A stretch of DNA of 50,456 bases, from NCBI GenBank assembly GCA_020048645.1, contig JAIFMG010000089.1:1-50456 (forward strand). The letters are read 5' to 3'. A program made the translations under genes and the position numbers. The DNA is from Bacteroidota bacterium (GTDB taxonomy: Bacteria; Bacteroidota; Bacteroidia; Bacteroidales; UBA6013). A model generated the notes under the pieces. The model searched no databases. It was not told the DNA's origin and worked only from the letters and a program-made list of their open reading frames with translations. Of the stretch, positions 465-38,101 are shown in pieces (position 1 is the stretch's first letter; every line of letters starts with the position of its first letter).

Positions 465-868
465 TACCAAGTTGCTATCGGCGATGCAATGTCTCAAACC
501 CATTTCTGGCAAATCCGGGCTGTTCTTCACCTGTCCATCGCTGGATTATTGCGCCCCTTCAGGGCTGGGCTGTTGGGTGGCTTGTTCCCGATGGGCTTCA
601 CCCATCGCTATGATATTTCGCCCCTTCAGGGCTTTTTGGGCGAAGTCCAGGCATCCCAAGGGGGCGAGGCCCTGACACCTTCGTAGCATTGCGCCGCCAC
701 TGCACCATCAAAAGGGGCGAAGCCCTGACACCTTCGTAGCATCGCGCCGTCACTGCACCATCAAAAGGGGCGTAGCCCTGACATCTTCCTAGCACTGCGT
801 CGCCACAGCACCATCAAACGGGGCGAGGCCCTGGCATCTTGTGCCAAGTTGCGTTCGGATATTTCGCC
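465..868. repeat. Interspersed repeat of the TACCAAGTTGC family
   Basis: This gene-free stretch opens with TACCAAGTTGC at 465 and closes with GTGCCAAGTTGCGTTCGGAT at 841, the same terminal word that flanks elements at 44363, 49381, 49436 and 49928. Inside are GC-rich palindromic words (CGCCCCTTCAGGGC at about 552 and 609) and the 53-bp tandem units. No coding frame here resembles a protein. It is best read as a non-autonomous, REP/MITE-like sequence; how it moves is unknown. Confidence 0.6.
661..846 (+). repeat. 53-bp tandem repeat, 3.5 units
   Basis: Units begin at 661, 714 and 767, each exactly 53 bp and starting GGGGCGWRGCCCTGACA, followed by a partial fourth unit from 820. The units are tandem without unique spacers, so this is not a CRISPR array. 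Confidence 0.9.
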
Positions 869-4255: not shown

Positions 4256-5350
4256 ATGGCAAACACAAACGAGTTTCATGCGGACATCGCGTTCCATCCG
4301 GGGGAAACGCTGGCCGAAAAATTGGAAGAATTGTCAATGGGCCCCAAGGAATTCGCGCTCCGCGCCGGCAAGCCTGAAAAGACGATCTTGGCCATCCTCC
4401 GGGGAGATAGCTCCATCACGCCCGAAATGGCTGTGATTTTTGAGAGCGTGCTGTCGATTCCTGCGCGATTTTGGATCAAAAAGCAGTACAGTTTCGACGA
4501 GTACAAAGCCCGGGAAAAGAGAGCATTGTCCATTCGGAACGCAATGGATTGGGCAGGACGCTTTCCTTATGCCGACATGGTCAGGCACGGATGGGTCGCG
4601 GCGAGAGCCAAGCCCGAGGAAAAAGTGGCCGAGCTGCTCAATTTCTTCGGAGTCAGTTCGCCTGAGGCTTGGGAGAACTACTTTTTCAACCAGCAACTGA
4701 AAGTGGCGTTCCGAATATCATTGGCGGGCACCAAGGCGCCGCACGCCCTTTCGGCCTGGATACGTCAAGGCGAAATCCAGGCCAGGGCCATCGAGTGTGG
4801 CCCGTACTCTGAGCCCGAGTTCAGGAAAGCATTGGACGACATCAAGATAATAATGGCCCAGCAGCCTGAAGACTTTTTCCAGAAATTGCAAAAGGCATGC
4901 TTGGCCTGTGGGCTGAAAGTCGTTCACACGGCATGCGTCAAAAACGCGCCATTGAGTGGGGCCAGCCGCTGGATACGAGACAATCCTTTGATACAGCTGA
5001 CGGGCAGGTACAAGCAGAACGATCGATTCTGGTTCACCTTTTTCCACGAGGCGGGCCATATTCTGCGGCATGGAAAAAAGGACATTTTCCTTGAAAATGT
5101 AGAATATTCGGAGGCTGATTTGCAAAAGGAAAAGGAAGCCGATGATTTCGCCGAAGAATGGACCTTTTCGCGGGCGCAAGAACACGAAGTCTTGAAAGAA
5201 AAACCCCTTGCCCTTGAACGTGTCCGAGAGTTTGCCATCAAGTTCAACACGCATCCGGCGATGATCATCGGACGACTTCACAAAAAAGGAATACTGCCTT
5301 ATTCAGTAGGGAATGAGTTTCTTGTGAAAATTGATTTGTCAGGCGAGTAG
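4256..5350 (+). CDS. higA: HigA-type antitoxin fused to an ImmA/IrrE metallopeptidase
   Basis: The N-terminal 80 residues form the HigA-like HTH (HPGETLAEKLEELSM, then ALRAGKPEKTILAILRGDSS). The C-terminal half is an ImmA/IrrE-type Zn-peptidase with FFHEAGHIL, giving H264, E265 and H268 of the HExxH site. At 364 aa it is over three times the size of a plain HigA. The HTH part probably binds HigB and the operator; the peptidase part may cleave the antitoxin or a partner under stress, as ImmA and IrrE do for their repressors. That last role is inference. Order is toxin first, as usual for higBA. Confidence 0.88.
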   Translation: MANTNEFHADIAFHPGETLAEKLEELSMGPKEFALRAGKPEKTILAILRGDSSITPEMAVIFESVLSIPARFWIKKQYSFDEYKAREKRALSIRNAMDWAGRFPYADMVRHGWVAARAKPEEKVAELLNFFGVSSPEAWENYFFNQQLKVAFRISLAGTKAPHALSAWIRQGEIQARAIECGPYSEPEFRKALDDIKIIMAQQPEDFFQKLQKACLACGLKVVHTACVKNAPLSGASRWIRDNPLIQLTGRYKQNDRFWFTFFHEAGHILRHGKKDIFLENVEYSEADLQKEKEADDFAEEWTFSRAQEHEVLKEKPLALERVREFAIKFNTHPAMIIGRLHKKGILPYSVGNEFLVKIDLSGE

Positions 5351-33987: not shown

Positions 33988-34280
33988 GGCGAGGCTTTTC
34001 CCGCAAGATACGCGTTGCCACTCGGAAACGCAAGGCCCCGGAGGGTTTTTCGAGCGTCGCGGGCCAATCCATCGCCTTGTCAAGGCTCGCCTCGGGTTGG
34101 GTATCCGTTCTGCACGGCCGCCTGGCGCATCAATGACTGGGCCTTGTTGCAAGCCCGCTATCTCGTTTTGTGACTACCGCTTTCCGATTGTTTCATTCTT
34201 TTGGGGCATCAGTTTTGCTCCTTATTCCATTGTCCAGTTTTTTGGGAGTATTTCAGTTACCTGCGTTCTTTTTTTCCTGT

Positions 34281-34495
34281 CTATTTGATATTTTCAGTTC
34301 GTAATCGTTTATTTTTGATAATAATTCTAAAATATGGGTACTTCCCATTTATAGATAAATCTTTATCGTCATCACCTTTTCTGAATTTTACAATTTCAAA
34401 TTGGTCTGGATTGAACTTATGTAGAAAAGTTATTGGAACTCCCATGTAACCTGCATAGTCTAATGGTATGTCTTGTGTTTTATCGACATTAATTC
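34281..34495 (-). pseudogene. C-terminal fragment of the EcoRI-type methyltransferase, cut off by IS256
   Basis: Read on the minus strand this encodes INVDKTQDIPLDYAGYMGVP, then a region matching the C-terminus of M.EcoRI (TFLHKFNPDQFEIVKFRKG, then DLSINGKYPYFRI), to a TAG at 34281-34283. It has no start codon or promoter of its own. Bases 34487-34495 are the left copy of the target duplication. If the IS and one duplication copy are removed, the frame joins perfectly to the N-terminal part at 35842-36649, giving a 337-aa protein. Confidence 0.93.
34487..34495. repeat. Left 9-bp target-site duplication of the IS256-family element
   Basis: CATTAATTC, identical to 35842-35850 on the other side of the element. 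Confidence 0.9.
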
Positions 34496-34539
34496 GACAC
34501 TGTCCTAAAAAGTGTGTAAATTGAATTCGGCACGTCGGC

Positions 34540-35742
34540 CTAAGATGAGGTTATGCGGTCGTTGAAGAGGATCATGAACTGGTTGAAAATGATACCCCAG
34601 TTTGGGACAGGCCTGCTCCACCTGGAGGTTATGTCTCGCAGCGCGAGGAAGACGGACTTGGCGAGCGCGTCGTCGGTGGGGAACGAGAGCTTGTTCCGGG
34701 TGTACATCCTGAGCTTCCCGTTCAGGTTCTCGATGACGTTGGTGGTGTAGACCGTCTTCCTGATCTCCAGGGGCAGGTCGAGGAAGGTTGTCAGGTCGTC
34801 CCAGTTCCTCCTCCAGGATTCCACGGCGTAGGCGTACTTCTGCGACCAGGCCCTGTCGAAGTCGTCGAAGGCGGCCCTGGCGGCGTCCCTGTTGGGGGCG
34901 GTGTAGATCGCCCTCATGGCCTTCGCGAAGTCCTTCTTGTGCTTCTGGGCCACGTGCTTGGCCGAGTTCCTGACCTGGTGGACCACGCAGACCTGCGTGG
35001 CGGCCTCGGGGAAGGCGGCCTTGACGGCCTGGGTGAAGCCGCTGAGGTTGTCGGAGACGCTGATGAGCGCGTCGCGGACGCCCCTGGCCTTGAGGTCGTT
35101 GAGGACCGACAGCCAGAAGGCGGCGCTCTCGTTCCTGGCCAGCCACATGCCGAGCACCTCCCTGAACCCGTCCTTCCTGAGCCCGACGGCCAGGTGCACG
35201 GCCTTGCTGACGACCCGGGACTCCTCGCGGACCTTGAAGACGATGGCGTCCATCCAGACCACCATGTAGAGGCTCTCCAGGGGGCGGTTCTGCCAGGCCA
35301 GGATGTCGCCGGCCACCTTGTCCGTGACCATGGAGATGGTGGAGGTGGAGACCTCGACGCCGTAGAGGTCGCGCACCTGGGCCTCGATGTCCGAGTTGCT
35401 CATGCCCCTGGCGTAGAGCGAGAGGATGGCCGACTCGATGCCCTCGCTCATCCGGGCCCGCTTGGGGACCAGCAAAGGCTCGAAGCTGGCGTCCCTGTCG
35501 CGGGGCACCCTTATCTGGACCTGGCCGAACTCGGTCTTGATTGTCTTGGACCCGTGCCCGTTCCTCGAGTTGCCGGGGTTCTTGCCCCGCTGGTGCCTGC
35601 CGTAGCCCAGGTGGGCGGAAAGCTCGCCCTCAAGCATGGACTCCACGCCCCGCCTGTAGAGCTCGACCATGAAGTCGCCGAAGTCCTTGGAGTCCTTGAA
35701 CTGGCTCAGGAAGTCGCTCTCGAAAAATTCTTCTCTTGTCAT
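34540..35742 (-). CDS. IS256-family transposase
   Basis: The 400-aa protein is full length for the Transposase_mut/IS256 family. DDE residues are recognisable in VVWMDAIVFK (first Asp), ISVSDNLSGF (second Asp) and TNVIENLNG (Glu). The N-terminal region has the typical RRGVESMLEGELSAHLGY block and a basic GKNPGNSRNGHGSKT segment. It ends 44 bp from the left end of the element. GC content is far higher than the interrupted restriction-modification genes and close to the chromosome. Confidence 0.96.
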   Translation of the reverse strand: MTREEFFESDFLSQFKDSKDFGDFMVELYRRGVESMLEGELSAHLGYGRHQRGKNPGNSRNGHGSKTIKTEFGQVQIRVPRDRDASFEPLLVPKRARMSEGIESAILSLYARGMSNSDIEAQVRDLYGVEVSTSTISMVTDKVAGDILAWQNRPLESLYMVVWMDAIVFKVREESRVVSKAVHLAVGLRKDGFREVLGMWLARNESAAFWLSVLNDLKARGVRDALISVSDNLSGFTQAVKAAFPEAATQVCVVHQVRNSAKHVAQKHKKDFAKAMRAIYTAPNRDAARAAFDDFDRAWSQKYAYAVESWRRNWDDLTTFLDLPLEIRKTVYTTNVIENLNGKLRMYTRNKLSFPTDDALAKSVFLALRDITSRWSRPVPNWGIIFNQFMILFNDRITSS

Positions 35743-35774
35743 GACTGTGTGTGTTTAGGGGTTGAAAATAATCC

Positions 35775-35814
35775 AATTTCTTTCCTTTGCCCCATGGGGC
35801 AAAGGAAAGAAATT
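35775..35814. repeat. 40-bp perfect palindrome near the right end of the IS
   Basis: Two 20-bp arms meet at CCCCATGGGG without a spacer (outer ends AATTTCTTTCC and GGAAAGAAATT). It lies between the right inverted repeat and the transposase start. As RNA it would fold into a very stable hairpin upstream of the transposase start, a position that in other IS limits expression from outside transcription. Confidence 0.85.
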
Positions 35815-35827
35815 CAACTTACACACT

Positions 35828-36649
35828 TTATTGGATACTGCCATTAATTCCATCGTAGTTGTCATATTTTGGGTATTCAACTTCGTTTCCAAAGTATTTC
35901 TTTGTGAGCTCAATATCTTCGTGACGTTTCAAAGTATCTAAGTTAGTTAACCACAACGCATTGTTTGGGGAAACTATTCTATTTCCTGAGCTATCAATAC
36001 GAGCTTCTGTTCCATAAAGTTCATAGTGTTCTGGCACGATAAAGCCTGAAATGCCCCGACCTAAATTTATACCCAACCACGCCTTGTTTTCTTTGATTAG
36101 TTTGAATATTTCTTTATAGGTAATAGCATTAACATTGCCAATTATTAAAAATTTCTTATCGTATTTAACCAATTGAGCTACAAACTCCCTAAATAATGAA
36201 AATGGCGGGTTGGTAACCACAATATCTGACTTCATTAAAAGTTTGACACTTTCTGCACTTCGGAAATCACCATCACCTTTAAAATGGATAATATCTTTTG
36301 AACTTGGCTTAATTTTTTCTCCTTCAGCACCTGTATATTCATAGAAACAACCACGTTCAAATTCTACATTATTAAACAAATCTCTTTCTTGATTGATGTA
36401 ACAAGCCGATATTAGCTTTTTGAGTCCTAATTCTTTAAAATTTAAAGCAAAATAATTATAAAAATTACTAATTCGGGGGTCATCGCAATTGCAATAAACT
36501 ACCTTATTTCTAAAATTACTTTTATAGTGTTGTAATTCACTTTCAATATCTGAAAGTTGTGTATAAAACTCATCACTTTTTGATTTTTTAGCTTTTTGTA
36601 ATAATTCATTTGTCGCATTTCTTGCCATTTTGATCTTTTTTATCTGCAA
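35828..36649 (-). pseudogene. EcoRI-type adenine methyltransferase, truncated by IS256 insertion
   Basis: The protein starts MARNATNELLQKAKKSKSDE and follows M.EcoRI closely (KVVYCNCDDPRISNFYNYF; catalytic DIVVTNPPFSLF; GLIVPEHYEL-like block GFIVPEHYELYGTEARIDSS). M.EcoRI methylates the second A of GAATTC. The native frame reaches GIN at the insertion point. The IS end then supplies GSIQ and a TAA at 35828-35830, so 269 native residues remain of a predicted 337. The missing 68 are at 34281-34486. The start is 3 bp after the endonuclease stop. Whether the shortened enzyme still methylates is unknown. Confidence 0.93.
35842..35850. repeat. Right 9-bp target-site duplication of the IS256-family element
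   Basis: CATTAATTC, identical to 34487-34495; on the minus strand it reads GAATTAATG within the methyltransferase gene. Confidence 0.9.
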
Positions 36650-36652
36650 AGT

Positions 36653-37486
36653 TTATATTTTAGTTATTTGATTAAATAAATCACTTCCTAAAAGTTGAAG
36701 CGATGTTTTAGAAATTTCAATCATAATATCAAACATATTTTTTGCGTCCCACTTTTCTCCATTCCCTTGTGTAAATATAGACGTTGCTTGAAGCATAATT
36801 GTTTTATCTTTATGTTTGATAAACTTGTTTTTACACAAATTGGTATTAATCGGCATTCCATAGTTTGCAGAAGTTAATCTATCTAACCGATTTAGCATTC
36901 CTGAATTATATTCCAGCGTAACAACCCTTCCATCAGGTCTTTTAATTGAAATAGTTTCTGTTAAAAAATTTGAGCCTTCCAGAAATAATACATCAGGGAA
37001 ATGAGATTCCGACAACATTAAATTAGCAATTTCTGAAATATTTTTATGCGACCTTTCTATTGCATTACCGGCAGCCATCAAATCTTGGTCATTTTTTGCA
37101 CCTACAAGTTTTCCTGCTTTAATGTTTTCAATGTCTTTCCCTTGATGTTTTGCTTCCGAAACTAAAACTATTCTCCAATTACCATTATCGTCTTTAACCT
37201 CGATTATTCCACCATCAGGTATAATACTTGAATTTGAAACAAAAAGTGTTTGACCTAATCCAGGGTCGACTTTTCTTAATGCTTCGTTTATTTCTTCTTT
37301 TTTTATACTCGTTCTATGTTGAAAAGATAACCGAGGAAAATCCTTTTCAAGTTGTTCAACCACAAAATGTGAAATTTTCCCAACTGATATATCATGCGAT
37401 TTTGCTTCATCACCGAATATCCCAACAACTCCCTGTGATTTTTTGTGTTGAGTTGTTAATCTTTGTGATTGATTCTTTTTAGCCAT
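36653..37486 (-). CDS. Type II restriction endonuclease, EcoRI homologue
   Basis: The 277-aa protein has exactly the length of EcoRI and can be read against it without gaps. The catalytic residues fall at the same numbers: D91 in PDGG, E111 and K113 in SEAKHQGKD. The recognition residues N141, E144 and R145 lie in GNAIERSHKN. It should therefore cut GAATTC, dimerising as EcoRI does. It is AT-rich compared with the chromosome, a sign of transfer. Gene order (endonuclease, then methyltransferase, same strand) is that of the EcoRI system. No frameshift or missing residue is visible, so the enzyme is predicted active. Confidence 0.96.
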   Translation of the reverse strand: MAKKNQSQRLTTQHKKSQGVVGIFGDEAKSHDISVGKISHFVVEQLEKDFPRLSFQHRTSIKKEEINEALRKVDPGLGQTLFVSNSSIIPDGGIIEVKDDNGNWRIVLVSEAKHQGKDIENIKAGKLVGAKNDQDLMAAGNAIERSHKNISEIANLMLSESHFPDVLFLEGSNFLTETISIKRPDGRVVTLEYNSGMLNRLDRLTSANYGMPINTNLCKNKFIKHKDKTIMLQATSIFTQGNGEKWDAKNMFDIMIEISKTSLQLLGSDLFNQITKI

Positions 37487-37523: not shown

Positions 37524-37554
37524 CAAATTTTATTCTATAGGTCATTTTTTGCAA
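37524..37554 (-). promoter_or_regulatory. Candidate promoter of the EcoRI-like operon
   Basis: On the minus strand TTG (37554-37552) is followed after 19 bp by TAAAATTTG (37532-37524), close to the Bacteroidota -33/-7 pattern. The endonuclease start is about 38 bp downstream. Confidence 0.4.
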
Positions 37555-37634
37555 TTGCAGGTAACGTCATTACTTCCAGCATCTTCAACTCGTACCCAAA
37601 AGCACAAGGGTGCAAATAGGAATCAAACGCAGAC

Positions 37635-37853
37635 CTAAAGAAAGCCCGCCAGTTCGCCCAACTTTCGAATCGGCAGATTTTGGAAGTCCTTGAGATTATG
37701 GGACAGTATGTCTGCGTCAATCCACAACCTGTTGCCCGAGGCGCGCACCCGTAAGCCTTGGCCCTTTGCATTGGCGATTTTAATGGGAAGACTGTTCATC
37801 GGATGTTTGCAATTGACGATAGCAAAGCTACAAAAGAAGTTTGGAGAAAGCAA
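37635..37853 (-). pseudogene. Probable PIN-domain (VapC-like) toxin remnant
   Basis: The frame ends with RASGNRLWIDADILSHNLKD and FQNLP, which resembles the last third of VapC/PIN toxins (the NDLWIAA and NLKDF blocks) with the intervening strand lost. The N-terminal acidic motif of a PIN domain cannot be found in any frame upstream. No antitoxin gene is visible. The rest of the 37487-38101 interval shows nothing I recognise. Confidence 0.4.
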
Positions 37854-38101
37854 GCAGGTCTCTTTTTGGGCCCTTGAGCGGATTGTTCCAGGATGAGTTT
37901 TGGCGGATCAGAAGAGAAGATGTTTCTCAACAAAATACGATAAGTTCAGATTAAAAGGTCGAGTCTTGCGCTGTAAGCGAACGGAAAATCCGCATTTGAA
38001 CATTTCTCGGGCAATCAATTTTTAGCGGTATTCCCATCGCAAGAACAGCCAACATCCTGTTTTGCTGTCCTTGTGATGGGATTGATTTGCGCTTGCAAGG
38101 C

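What the first reader, a model, noticed from the sequence alone, without database searches (positions are those of the whole stretch)
34281..37486. EcoRI-like endonuclease intact while its methyltransferase gene is split by an IS256 element
The endonuclease has full length and all EcoRI catalytic and recognition residues. The methyltransferase is cut after GIN by a 1346-bp IS256-family element with a 9-bp duplication, and its last 68 codons lie on the far side in perfect register. An active GAATTC nuclease without protection should be lethal: GAATTC occurs in this window at 4349, 25040, 25687, 32555, 33303 and, inside the IS itself, 34523. So one of these must hold: the shortened methylase still works, the nuclease is silent, another methylase protects, the site is modified otherwise, or the insertion is present in only part of the population.
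Basis: partly seen in the sequence, partly recalled or inferred. Interest (0 to 1): 0.92.

Follow-up and report, generated by a model that had tools for sequence, protein, structure and literature searches.

The report
EcoRI system decaying after IS256 hit
A bacterium carries an EcoRI-type DNA-cutting gene that still reads through in full, while the gene that should protect its own DNA is cut in two by a jumping element; the cutter carries a striking change at a residue that hardly ever varies, so this is most likely a defence system in early decay rather than a cell surviving an active unprotected nuclease.

Summary
A 1346-bp IS256-family element (34496-35841, duplication CATTAATTC) splits an M.EcoRI-family gene after codon 262; the last 68 codons follow in register; the adjacent EcoRI gene is open and full length. 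It is unusual: among 84 distinct relatives, 58 have both genes full, 23 a full methylase with a broken or absent nuclease, 3 are cut by contig ends, and none has a full nuclease beside a broken methylase. The lost end is as conserved as the rest, so the stump is probably dead. No second EcoRI- or RsrI-type methylase was found in the 92%-complete assembly. This worst residue ranks 3rd of 64 although the protein as a whole is typical. Best reading: the nuclease was crippled first (probably Y165D), the methylase became dispensable, and the fresh insertion was tolerated. A mixed population, or a methylase on an unbinned plasmid, remains possible. Full-length nucleases beside broken methylases are already catalogued (74 in PMC3488263), so this is a good example of a known kind.

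The parts
36653..37486 (-). EcoRI-type restriction endonuclease gene (R), 277 codons, open and full length; Asp165 codon at 36992-36994
35842..36628 (-). 5' part of the M.EcoRI-family methyltransferase gene (262 codons before the IS), including the DEFYTQ and NPPF motifs
34496..35841 (-). IS256-family insertion sequence, 1346 bp, only copy in this assembly
34540..35742 (-). IS256-family transposase, 400 aa, full length
34487..34495 (.). 9-bp target duplication CATTAATTC, left copy
35842..35850 (.). 9-bp target duplication CATTAATTC, right copy
34281..34495 (-). 3' part of the methyltransferase gene with the left duplication copy: last 68 codons plus stop, in register; matches PF13651 positions 264-341
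37557..37565 (-). GTTACCTGC box upstream of R (attC-like boundary shared with units in relatives)
34256..34264 (+). GTTACCTGC box just after the M stop (inverted partner of the upstream box)

Best explanation
This is a horizontally acquired EcoRI-type restriction-modification unit in an early stage of decay. An IS256-family element landed recently in the methylase gene and cut off its conserved last 68 codons, which very probably kills the methylase (insertion shown; loss of function inferred). The cell could tolerate this because the nuclease was already crippled, most likely by the single-residue change Tyr165 to Asp in an almost invariant block (FP-Y-VLFLEGSNF) that leaves the reading frame and the active site untouched (substitution shown; effect and order of events inferred). 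With no working nuclease the methylase was dispensable, so the insertion was neutral.
For: Insertion with perfect duplication and open frames on both sides. Lost segment, codons 263-325: mean conservation 0.88 against 0.85 for the retained part, 30 of 63 columns at least 98% conserved in 83 relatives. At residue 165 the 65 aligned nucleases have Tyr in 63, Phe in one 30%-identical relative, Asp only in the window; the window's worst residue ranks 3rd of 64 while its mean score ranks 41st of 64 from the worst. The two M pieces show no such odd substitution. dN/dS of R, M5' and M3' as in relatives (0.05-0.12, 0.06-0.13, 0.03-0.13), so the breakage looks recent. EcoRI plasmid loss causes SOS response and post-segregational killing in E. 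coli (PMC11324026, abstract read), so an active unprotected R should not persist: 0 of 58 distinct relatives with full R and uncut M gene region has a broken M.
Against: No activity or expression data exist. The number of odd substitutions in the window R (2) is ordinary: 44 of 54 relatives have as many or fewer, median 1, maximum 12. 6 of 55 sequences including the window carry a substitution of BLOSUM62 -3 or worse at a column at least 98% conserved, so Y165D may be harmless. dN/dS shows no relaxation, as expected only if the decay is very recent; dS is near or above 1 in most comparisons, so the ratios are rough. The R upstream region has a Bacteroidetes-type promoter match of 8 of 9 (21 of 52 relatives and 145 of 1060 shuffles reach 8 or more), so promoter loss is not evident.
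Confidence: 0.52

Rival explanations
1. The cell is protected after all: an intact methylase sits on an unbinned plasmid or in the missing part of the genome, or the insertion is present in only part of the population and the assembler kept that path.
For: The genome is a 242-contig assembly, 92.2% complete; EcoRI systems in E. coli lie on plasmids (8 of 8 places), which are often lost in binning (recalled). Strong purifying selection on R.
Against: No second M.EcoRI-family gene in the assembly; no RsrI-type orthologue among the nine PF01555 genes compared; no D12-family gene over the cut-off. A sub-population cannot be tested without reads.
Confidence: 0.22
2. The nuclease protein is competent but not expressed in this host, so the loss of the methylase costs nothing.
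For: The unit is foreign in composition (29-32% GC in a 56-57% GC window), and EcoRI-type R transcription is held down by reverse promoters (PMC12707154, section 12 read).
Against: Promoter-like match upstream (weak); GAATTC is rare in this genome (45 per Mb, lowest of 60), which hints at past restriction, though the composition-corrected rank is only 5 of 47.
Confidence: 0.14
3. The shortened methylase (262 plus 4 residues), alone or with a separately made 3' piece, still methylates GAATTC.
For: The DEFYTQ and NPPF motifs lie in the retained part.
Against: The lost part is as conserved as the rest; no M in the survey ends near residue 266 except L025, which is cut by its contig end; in the 3' piece the only in-frame ATG, GTG or TTG downstream of the last stop is an ATG at 34443-34445, well inside the conserved part. 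Both structure predictions were too poor to judge (pLDDT 59.6 and 63.6).
Confidence: 0.05
4. The nuclease is active and unprotected, and the cell lives with it, by few sites, repair or DNA shielding.
For: Catalytic and recognition residues are intact; GAATTC density is the lowest of 60 genomes. PMC3488263 (discussion read) lists rare sites, repair and nucleoid shielding as possible reasons for other solitary nucleases.
Against: 218 sites remain; EcoRI plasmid loss kills E. coli (PMC11324026, abstract); Y165D.
Confidence: 0.04
5. Reversible switch: precise excision of the IS restores the methylase, making protection phase-variable.
For: Reversible insertion and excision of IS256-family elements is documented for biofilm genes (PMC5649170, passages read, citing Ziebuhr 1999).
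Against: Switching the methylase off with R on would be suicidal; one insertion, no second state seen in the assembly.
Confidence: 0.03

Closest known systems
EcoRI restriction-modification system (R.EcoRI PF02963, M.EcoRI PF13651)
   Same: R then M on one strand; R 277 aa, D91, E111, K113, N141, R145, R200, R203 kept (residue roles recalled, identities).
   Different: M is split by an IS; R has Asp165 instead of Tyr.
Solitary restriction endonucleases with methylase pseudogenes (Ershova et al. 2012, PMC3488263; abstract, second part of the results and the discussion read)
   Same: Full-length R beside an inactive M, intact orthologous systems elsewhere, no other cognate M found; the paper counts 74 such systems.
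   Different: Here the lesion is a clean IS256 insertion (the paper speaks of truncations and frameshifts in these 74), and a candidate inactivating missense in R is identified.
IS256-family insertion sequences
   Same: Mutator-type transposase, terminal inverted repeats, 9-bp target duplication.
   Different: Single copy in this assembly; no near-identical copy in 59 other same-order genomes.

Membership tests
EcoRI-type Type II restriction-modification system | Full-length EcoRI-fold nuclease with its active-site and recognition residues | tested here: met
EcoRI-type Type II restriction-modification system | Complete cognate GAATTC methyltransferase | tested here: not met
   Gene split after codon 262; only copy in the assembly
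EcoRI-type Type II restriction-modification system | GAATTC cleavage and m6A protection | not testable with these tools
   no reads, modification calls or assays
IS256-family insertion sequence | Mutator/IS256 transposase | tested here: met
   NF033543 8.5e-124, PF00872 1.3e-112
IS256-family insertion sequence | 8-9 bp target duplication and terminal inverted repeats | tested here: met
Solitary restriction endonuclease with methylase pseudogene | Full-length R, broken neighbouring M, intact orthologous systems elsewhere | tested here: met
Solitary restriction endonuclease with methylase pseudogene | No other cognate M in the genome | tested here: inconclusive
   None of EcoRI or RsrI type in the assembly, but it is 92% complete and other families were not searched
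IS256 phase switch | Both occupied and precisely excised states in the population | not testable with these tools
   no reads; the 30-base uninterrupted junction is absent from viral contigs, the only collection scanned for it
Integron gene cassette | attC site at the end of the unit | tested here: inconclusive
   Boxes on both sides of the window unit, full attC-like hairpins seen only in relatives L012 and L042; no integron integrase over the cut-off in the own genome

The most novel reading that the evidence does not exclude
A genuinely active EcoRI nuclease, perhaps attenuated by Asp165, lives in a cell without its methylase, tolerated because GAATTC is rare and breaks are repaired; that is, a natural EcoRI variant tamed by a mutation outside the active site that no longer needs an antidote.
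Probability: 0.06. Interest if true: 0.75.

Novelty: new member of a known kind. Interest (0 to 1): 0.36.

Why it matters
These EcoRI systems decay nuclease-first: in 23 of 84 distinct relatives the methylase is full while the nuclease is broken or absent, and in none is a full nuclease left with a broken methylase. A full-length nuclease beside a freshly broken methylase is the rare configuration that should be lethal, so each case predicts a hidden lesion in the nuclease or hidden protection. Here a specific candidate, Tyr165 to Asp, can be tested directly in one of the best-studied enzymes of molecular biology. If it abolishes cutting, 'invariant residue broken, antidote lost next' becomes a usable rule for reading decaying systems; if not, a truly tolerated EcoRI would be surprising.

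Tried and rejected
Assembly artefact: rejected as unlikely, because of the exact 9-bp duplication and proper IS ends inside a contig.

Second methylase: own-genome searches with the M protein, PF01555 (11 hits) and PF02086 (3 hits, none over the cut-off). L117 is CcrM-like (157 bits to CcrM, 48 to RsrI); L113 is nearer CcrM (95 bits) than RsrI (63); L115 is nearest 2zie and N4-cytosine enzymes. L116, L119, L120 and L121 look like type III Mod proteins by length and motifs (my reading, no call). L114 and L118, and L116 and L119-L121, were compared only with the Acinetobacter RsrI-type methylase, and the two partial hits on C136 and C12 not at all. Type I, Eco57I-type and other methylase families were not searched.

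Structure of the methylase: both AlphaFold jobs gave poor models (pLDDT 59.6 and 63.6), so no fold search was run and nothing is concluded on the role of the lost end.

GAATTC avoidance as proof of an active nuclease: suggestive only. Own density is the lowest of 60 (sizes of the others are rounded); order-2 O/E 0.26 ranks 5 of 47, and G010, which carries an intact system, ranks 1 (13 of 60 genomes dropped for too little sample sequence, most others represented by 20 kb or less). Within the own genome GAATTC ranks only 15th of 64 palindromes.

Promoter loss upstream of R: not supported, but the scan has little power.

Literature: the listings show no paper whose title or abstract start reports an IS inside M.EcoRI; the library is open-access only. 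No statement on EcoRI Tyr165 was found in the one review searched for it (PMC4081073); the 1987 study of EcoRI null mutations that it cites was not available to me.
Full report
WHAT IS THERE. On the minus strand lie an EcoRI-type endonuclease gene (37486 to 36653, 277 codons) and, 24 bases on, a methyltransferase gene of the M.EcoRI family starting at 36628. The methyltransferase reads 262 codons and then runs into a 1346-bp element (34496-35841), which adds four codons and a stop. Beyond the element the last 68 codons follow in register. The element has imperfect terminal inverted repeats, a 9-bp duplication CATTAATTC and a full-length IS256-family transposase. Pfam sees PF13651 positions 2-265 in one piece and 264-341 in the other. 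An uninterrupted relative in the same order (G010:C104) aligns at 80-82% DNA identity with the two pieces contiguous.

SETTING. The window lies in a 4.81-Mb, 242-contig, 92.2%-complete assembly. Its order contains G010, whose contig has the length and the M sequence of a GenBank MAG titled Paludibacter, and G564, whose R and M coordinates match a MAG titled Bacteroidales; so the host is probably in Bacteroidales (inference). The R-M unit has 29-32% GC, the element 61% and the flanks 56-57%, so the unit looks acquired and the element resembles the host. The element and its transposase occur once in the assembly.

HOW UNUSUAL. By an automatic rule on tblastn coverage and stops, of 88 loci 61 had both genes full, 19 a full M with broken R, 4 a full M with no R, 3 a full M with R at a contig edge, and 1 had M at an edge with broken R. 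Adding L248 and removing duplicates (arithmetic by hand) leaves 84 distinct: 58, 19, 4, 2 and 1. None has a full R with a broken M. In E. coli, 7 of 5,426 genomes carry the system, all with both genes annotated (one record is split at its start). R-first searches: in the phylum 3 of 395 genomes match, the own one and two whose M is full; in the order 7 of 393 match including the own one. Of those 6 others, 3 have a full R and all 3 a full M, 1 has a broken R with full M, and 2 are cut by contig ends with no M in view, one of them also with a stop inside R. Four of the genomes in these two searches (G010, G564, G168, G341) are loci already counted.

IS THE STUMP A METHYLASE? The lost columns 263-325 have mean top-residue frequency 0.884 against 0.854 for 1-262, with 30 of 63 columns at least 98% conserved in 83 relatives, including the block GVPITFLHK..N..QFE...FRKG. 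Loss of function is therefore very likely but not shown. The 3' piece has one in-frame ATG/GTG/TTG after the last stop, at 34443-34445, inside the conserved part. Two structure predictions were too poor to use.

IS THERE ANOTHER METHYLASE? No second M.EcoRI-family gene. An EcoRI-family nuclease on an Acinetobacter plasmid (46% identical) is paired with a true RsrI-type methylase (365 bits to M.RsrI), which shows that the alternative partner exists in nature. Against that yardstick the best of nine PF01555 genes of the own genome reaches only 25% identity and 84 bits. Within the assembly there is thus no candidate of either of these two types; the missing 8% and plasmids remain open, and other methylase families were not searched.

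IS THE NUCLEASE SOUND? The catalytic and recognition positions checked (list recalled) are identical to EcoRI. But a test of window-specific substitutions at conserved columns gives Y165D and the mild Y238F, the latter shared with one relative. Tyr165 lies in FP-Y-VLFLEGSNF; in an alignment of 65 nucleases reaching down to 30% identity it is Tyr in 63, Phe in the most distant, Asp only here. In a leave-one-out profile score of 64 sequences (the Paracoccus one left out) the window's worst residue ranks 3rd, behind the very distant Acinetobacter protein and L018, while its mean score ranks 41st from the worst. Counter-evidence: 44 of 54 relatives have as many or fewer odd substitutions, with a median of 1 and a maximum of 12, so the number (2) is not unusual; and 6 of 55 sequences including the window carry one as harsh. 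Y165D is a candidate, not a proof.

AGE. dN/dS of the window against 14 relatives is 0.05-0.12 for R, 0.06-0.13 for M5' and 0.03-0.13 for M3' (13 computable); relatives among themselves have medians 0.083, 0.090 and 0.131. dS is near or above 1 in most pairs, so the ratios are rough. With a perfect duplication and open frames, the insertion looks recent.

GAATTC. 218 sites remain in the genome, the lowest density of 60 genomes of the order including itself. Corrected for composition the rank is 5 of 47, and the carrier G010 ranks 1. This hints that restriction acted in this lineage, but GC content differs greatly and within the genome GAATTC ranks only 15 of 64 palindromes.

MECHANISM. Because loss of an EcoRI plasmid triggers SOS and killing in E. 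coli (PMC11324026, abstract), a lineage with a dead methylase must have a nuclease that does not bite or some other protection. The simplest account is two steps: a missense in R that spares the frame, then a neutral insertion in M. Shown: insertion, substitution, conservation, absence of a second methylase of EcoRI or RsrI type in the assembly. Inferred: loss of both activities, their order, and that most cells carry the insertion.

COMPARISON. Ershova et al. 2012 (PMC3488263; abstract, second part of the results and the discussion read) report 74 systems with a full-length nuclease and a possibly inactive methylase and offer much the same set of explanations. This case belongs with them.

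SIDE FINDING. In 10 relatives and the window a GTTRCCTGC box lies 68-121 bp before R, and in two relatives and the window GCAGGTAAC follows within 17 bp of the M stop (86 loci and the window scanned). The motif was chosen after seeing the sequences. 16 of 41 boxes in 908 kb lie within 400 bp of the unit. In L012 and L042 the stretch upstream folds as a 142-144 base hairpin with paired ends, as expected of integron attC sites (recalled). The own genome has no integron integrase over the cut-off. EcoRI systems may thus travel as integron cassettes in these bacteria; this was only partly followed.

Noticed in passing
L008, L009, L012, L014, L019, L020, L042, L045, L047, L057 upstream of R; L009 and L014 downstream of M; window 37557-37565 and 34256-34264: EcoRI R-M units are bounded by attC-like boxes (GTTRCCTGC / GCAGGTAAC), with long hairpins in L012 and L042: these systems may move as integron cassettes.
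   Followed up: partly
G000 sample of 400 kb (L132-L151): Palindromes CAGCTG (3 seen, 205 expected), GTCGAC (4, 218), GTGCAC (1, 58) and GTATAC (0, 7) are almost absent from this genome sample, far more depleted than GAATTC (14, 43); this suggests other restriction systems with these targets.
   Followed up: no
window 37529-37855: A diverged repeat (about 70-81% identical pieces) next to the R-M unit recurs on contigs C215, C4, C22, C93, C48, C234 and C102 of the same genome.
   Followed up: no
window 35775-35814: Perfect 40-bp palindrome inside the IS between its right end and the transposase start, perhaps a guard against read-through transcription.
   Followed up: no
window 589-633: Acido-Lenti-1 RNA (RF01687), 37.2 bits at a gathering score of 37, in a genome probably of Bacteroidales.
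   Followed up: no
L253 (Acinetobacter plasmid NZ_CP044480.1): An EcoRI-family nuclease paired with an RsrI-type methylase instead of an M.EcoRI-type one: partner exchange between unrelated methylases.
   Followed up: partly
L081, L082, L084, L087: Divergent EcoRI systems (57-59% identical R) with the reverse gene order, M before R.
   Followed up: no
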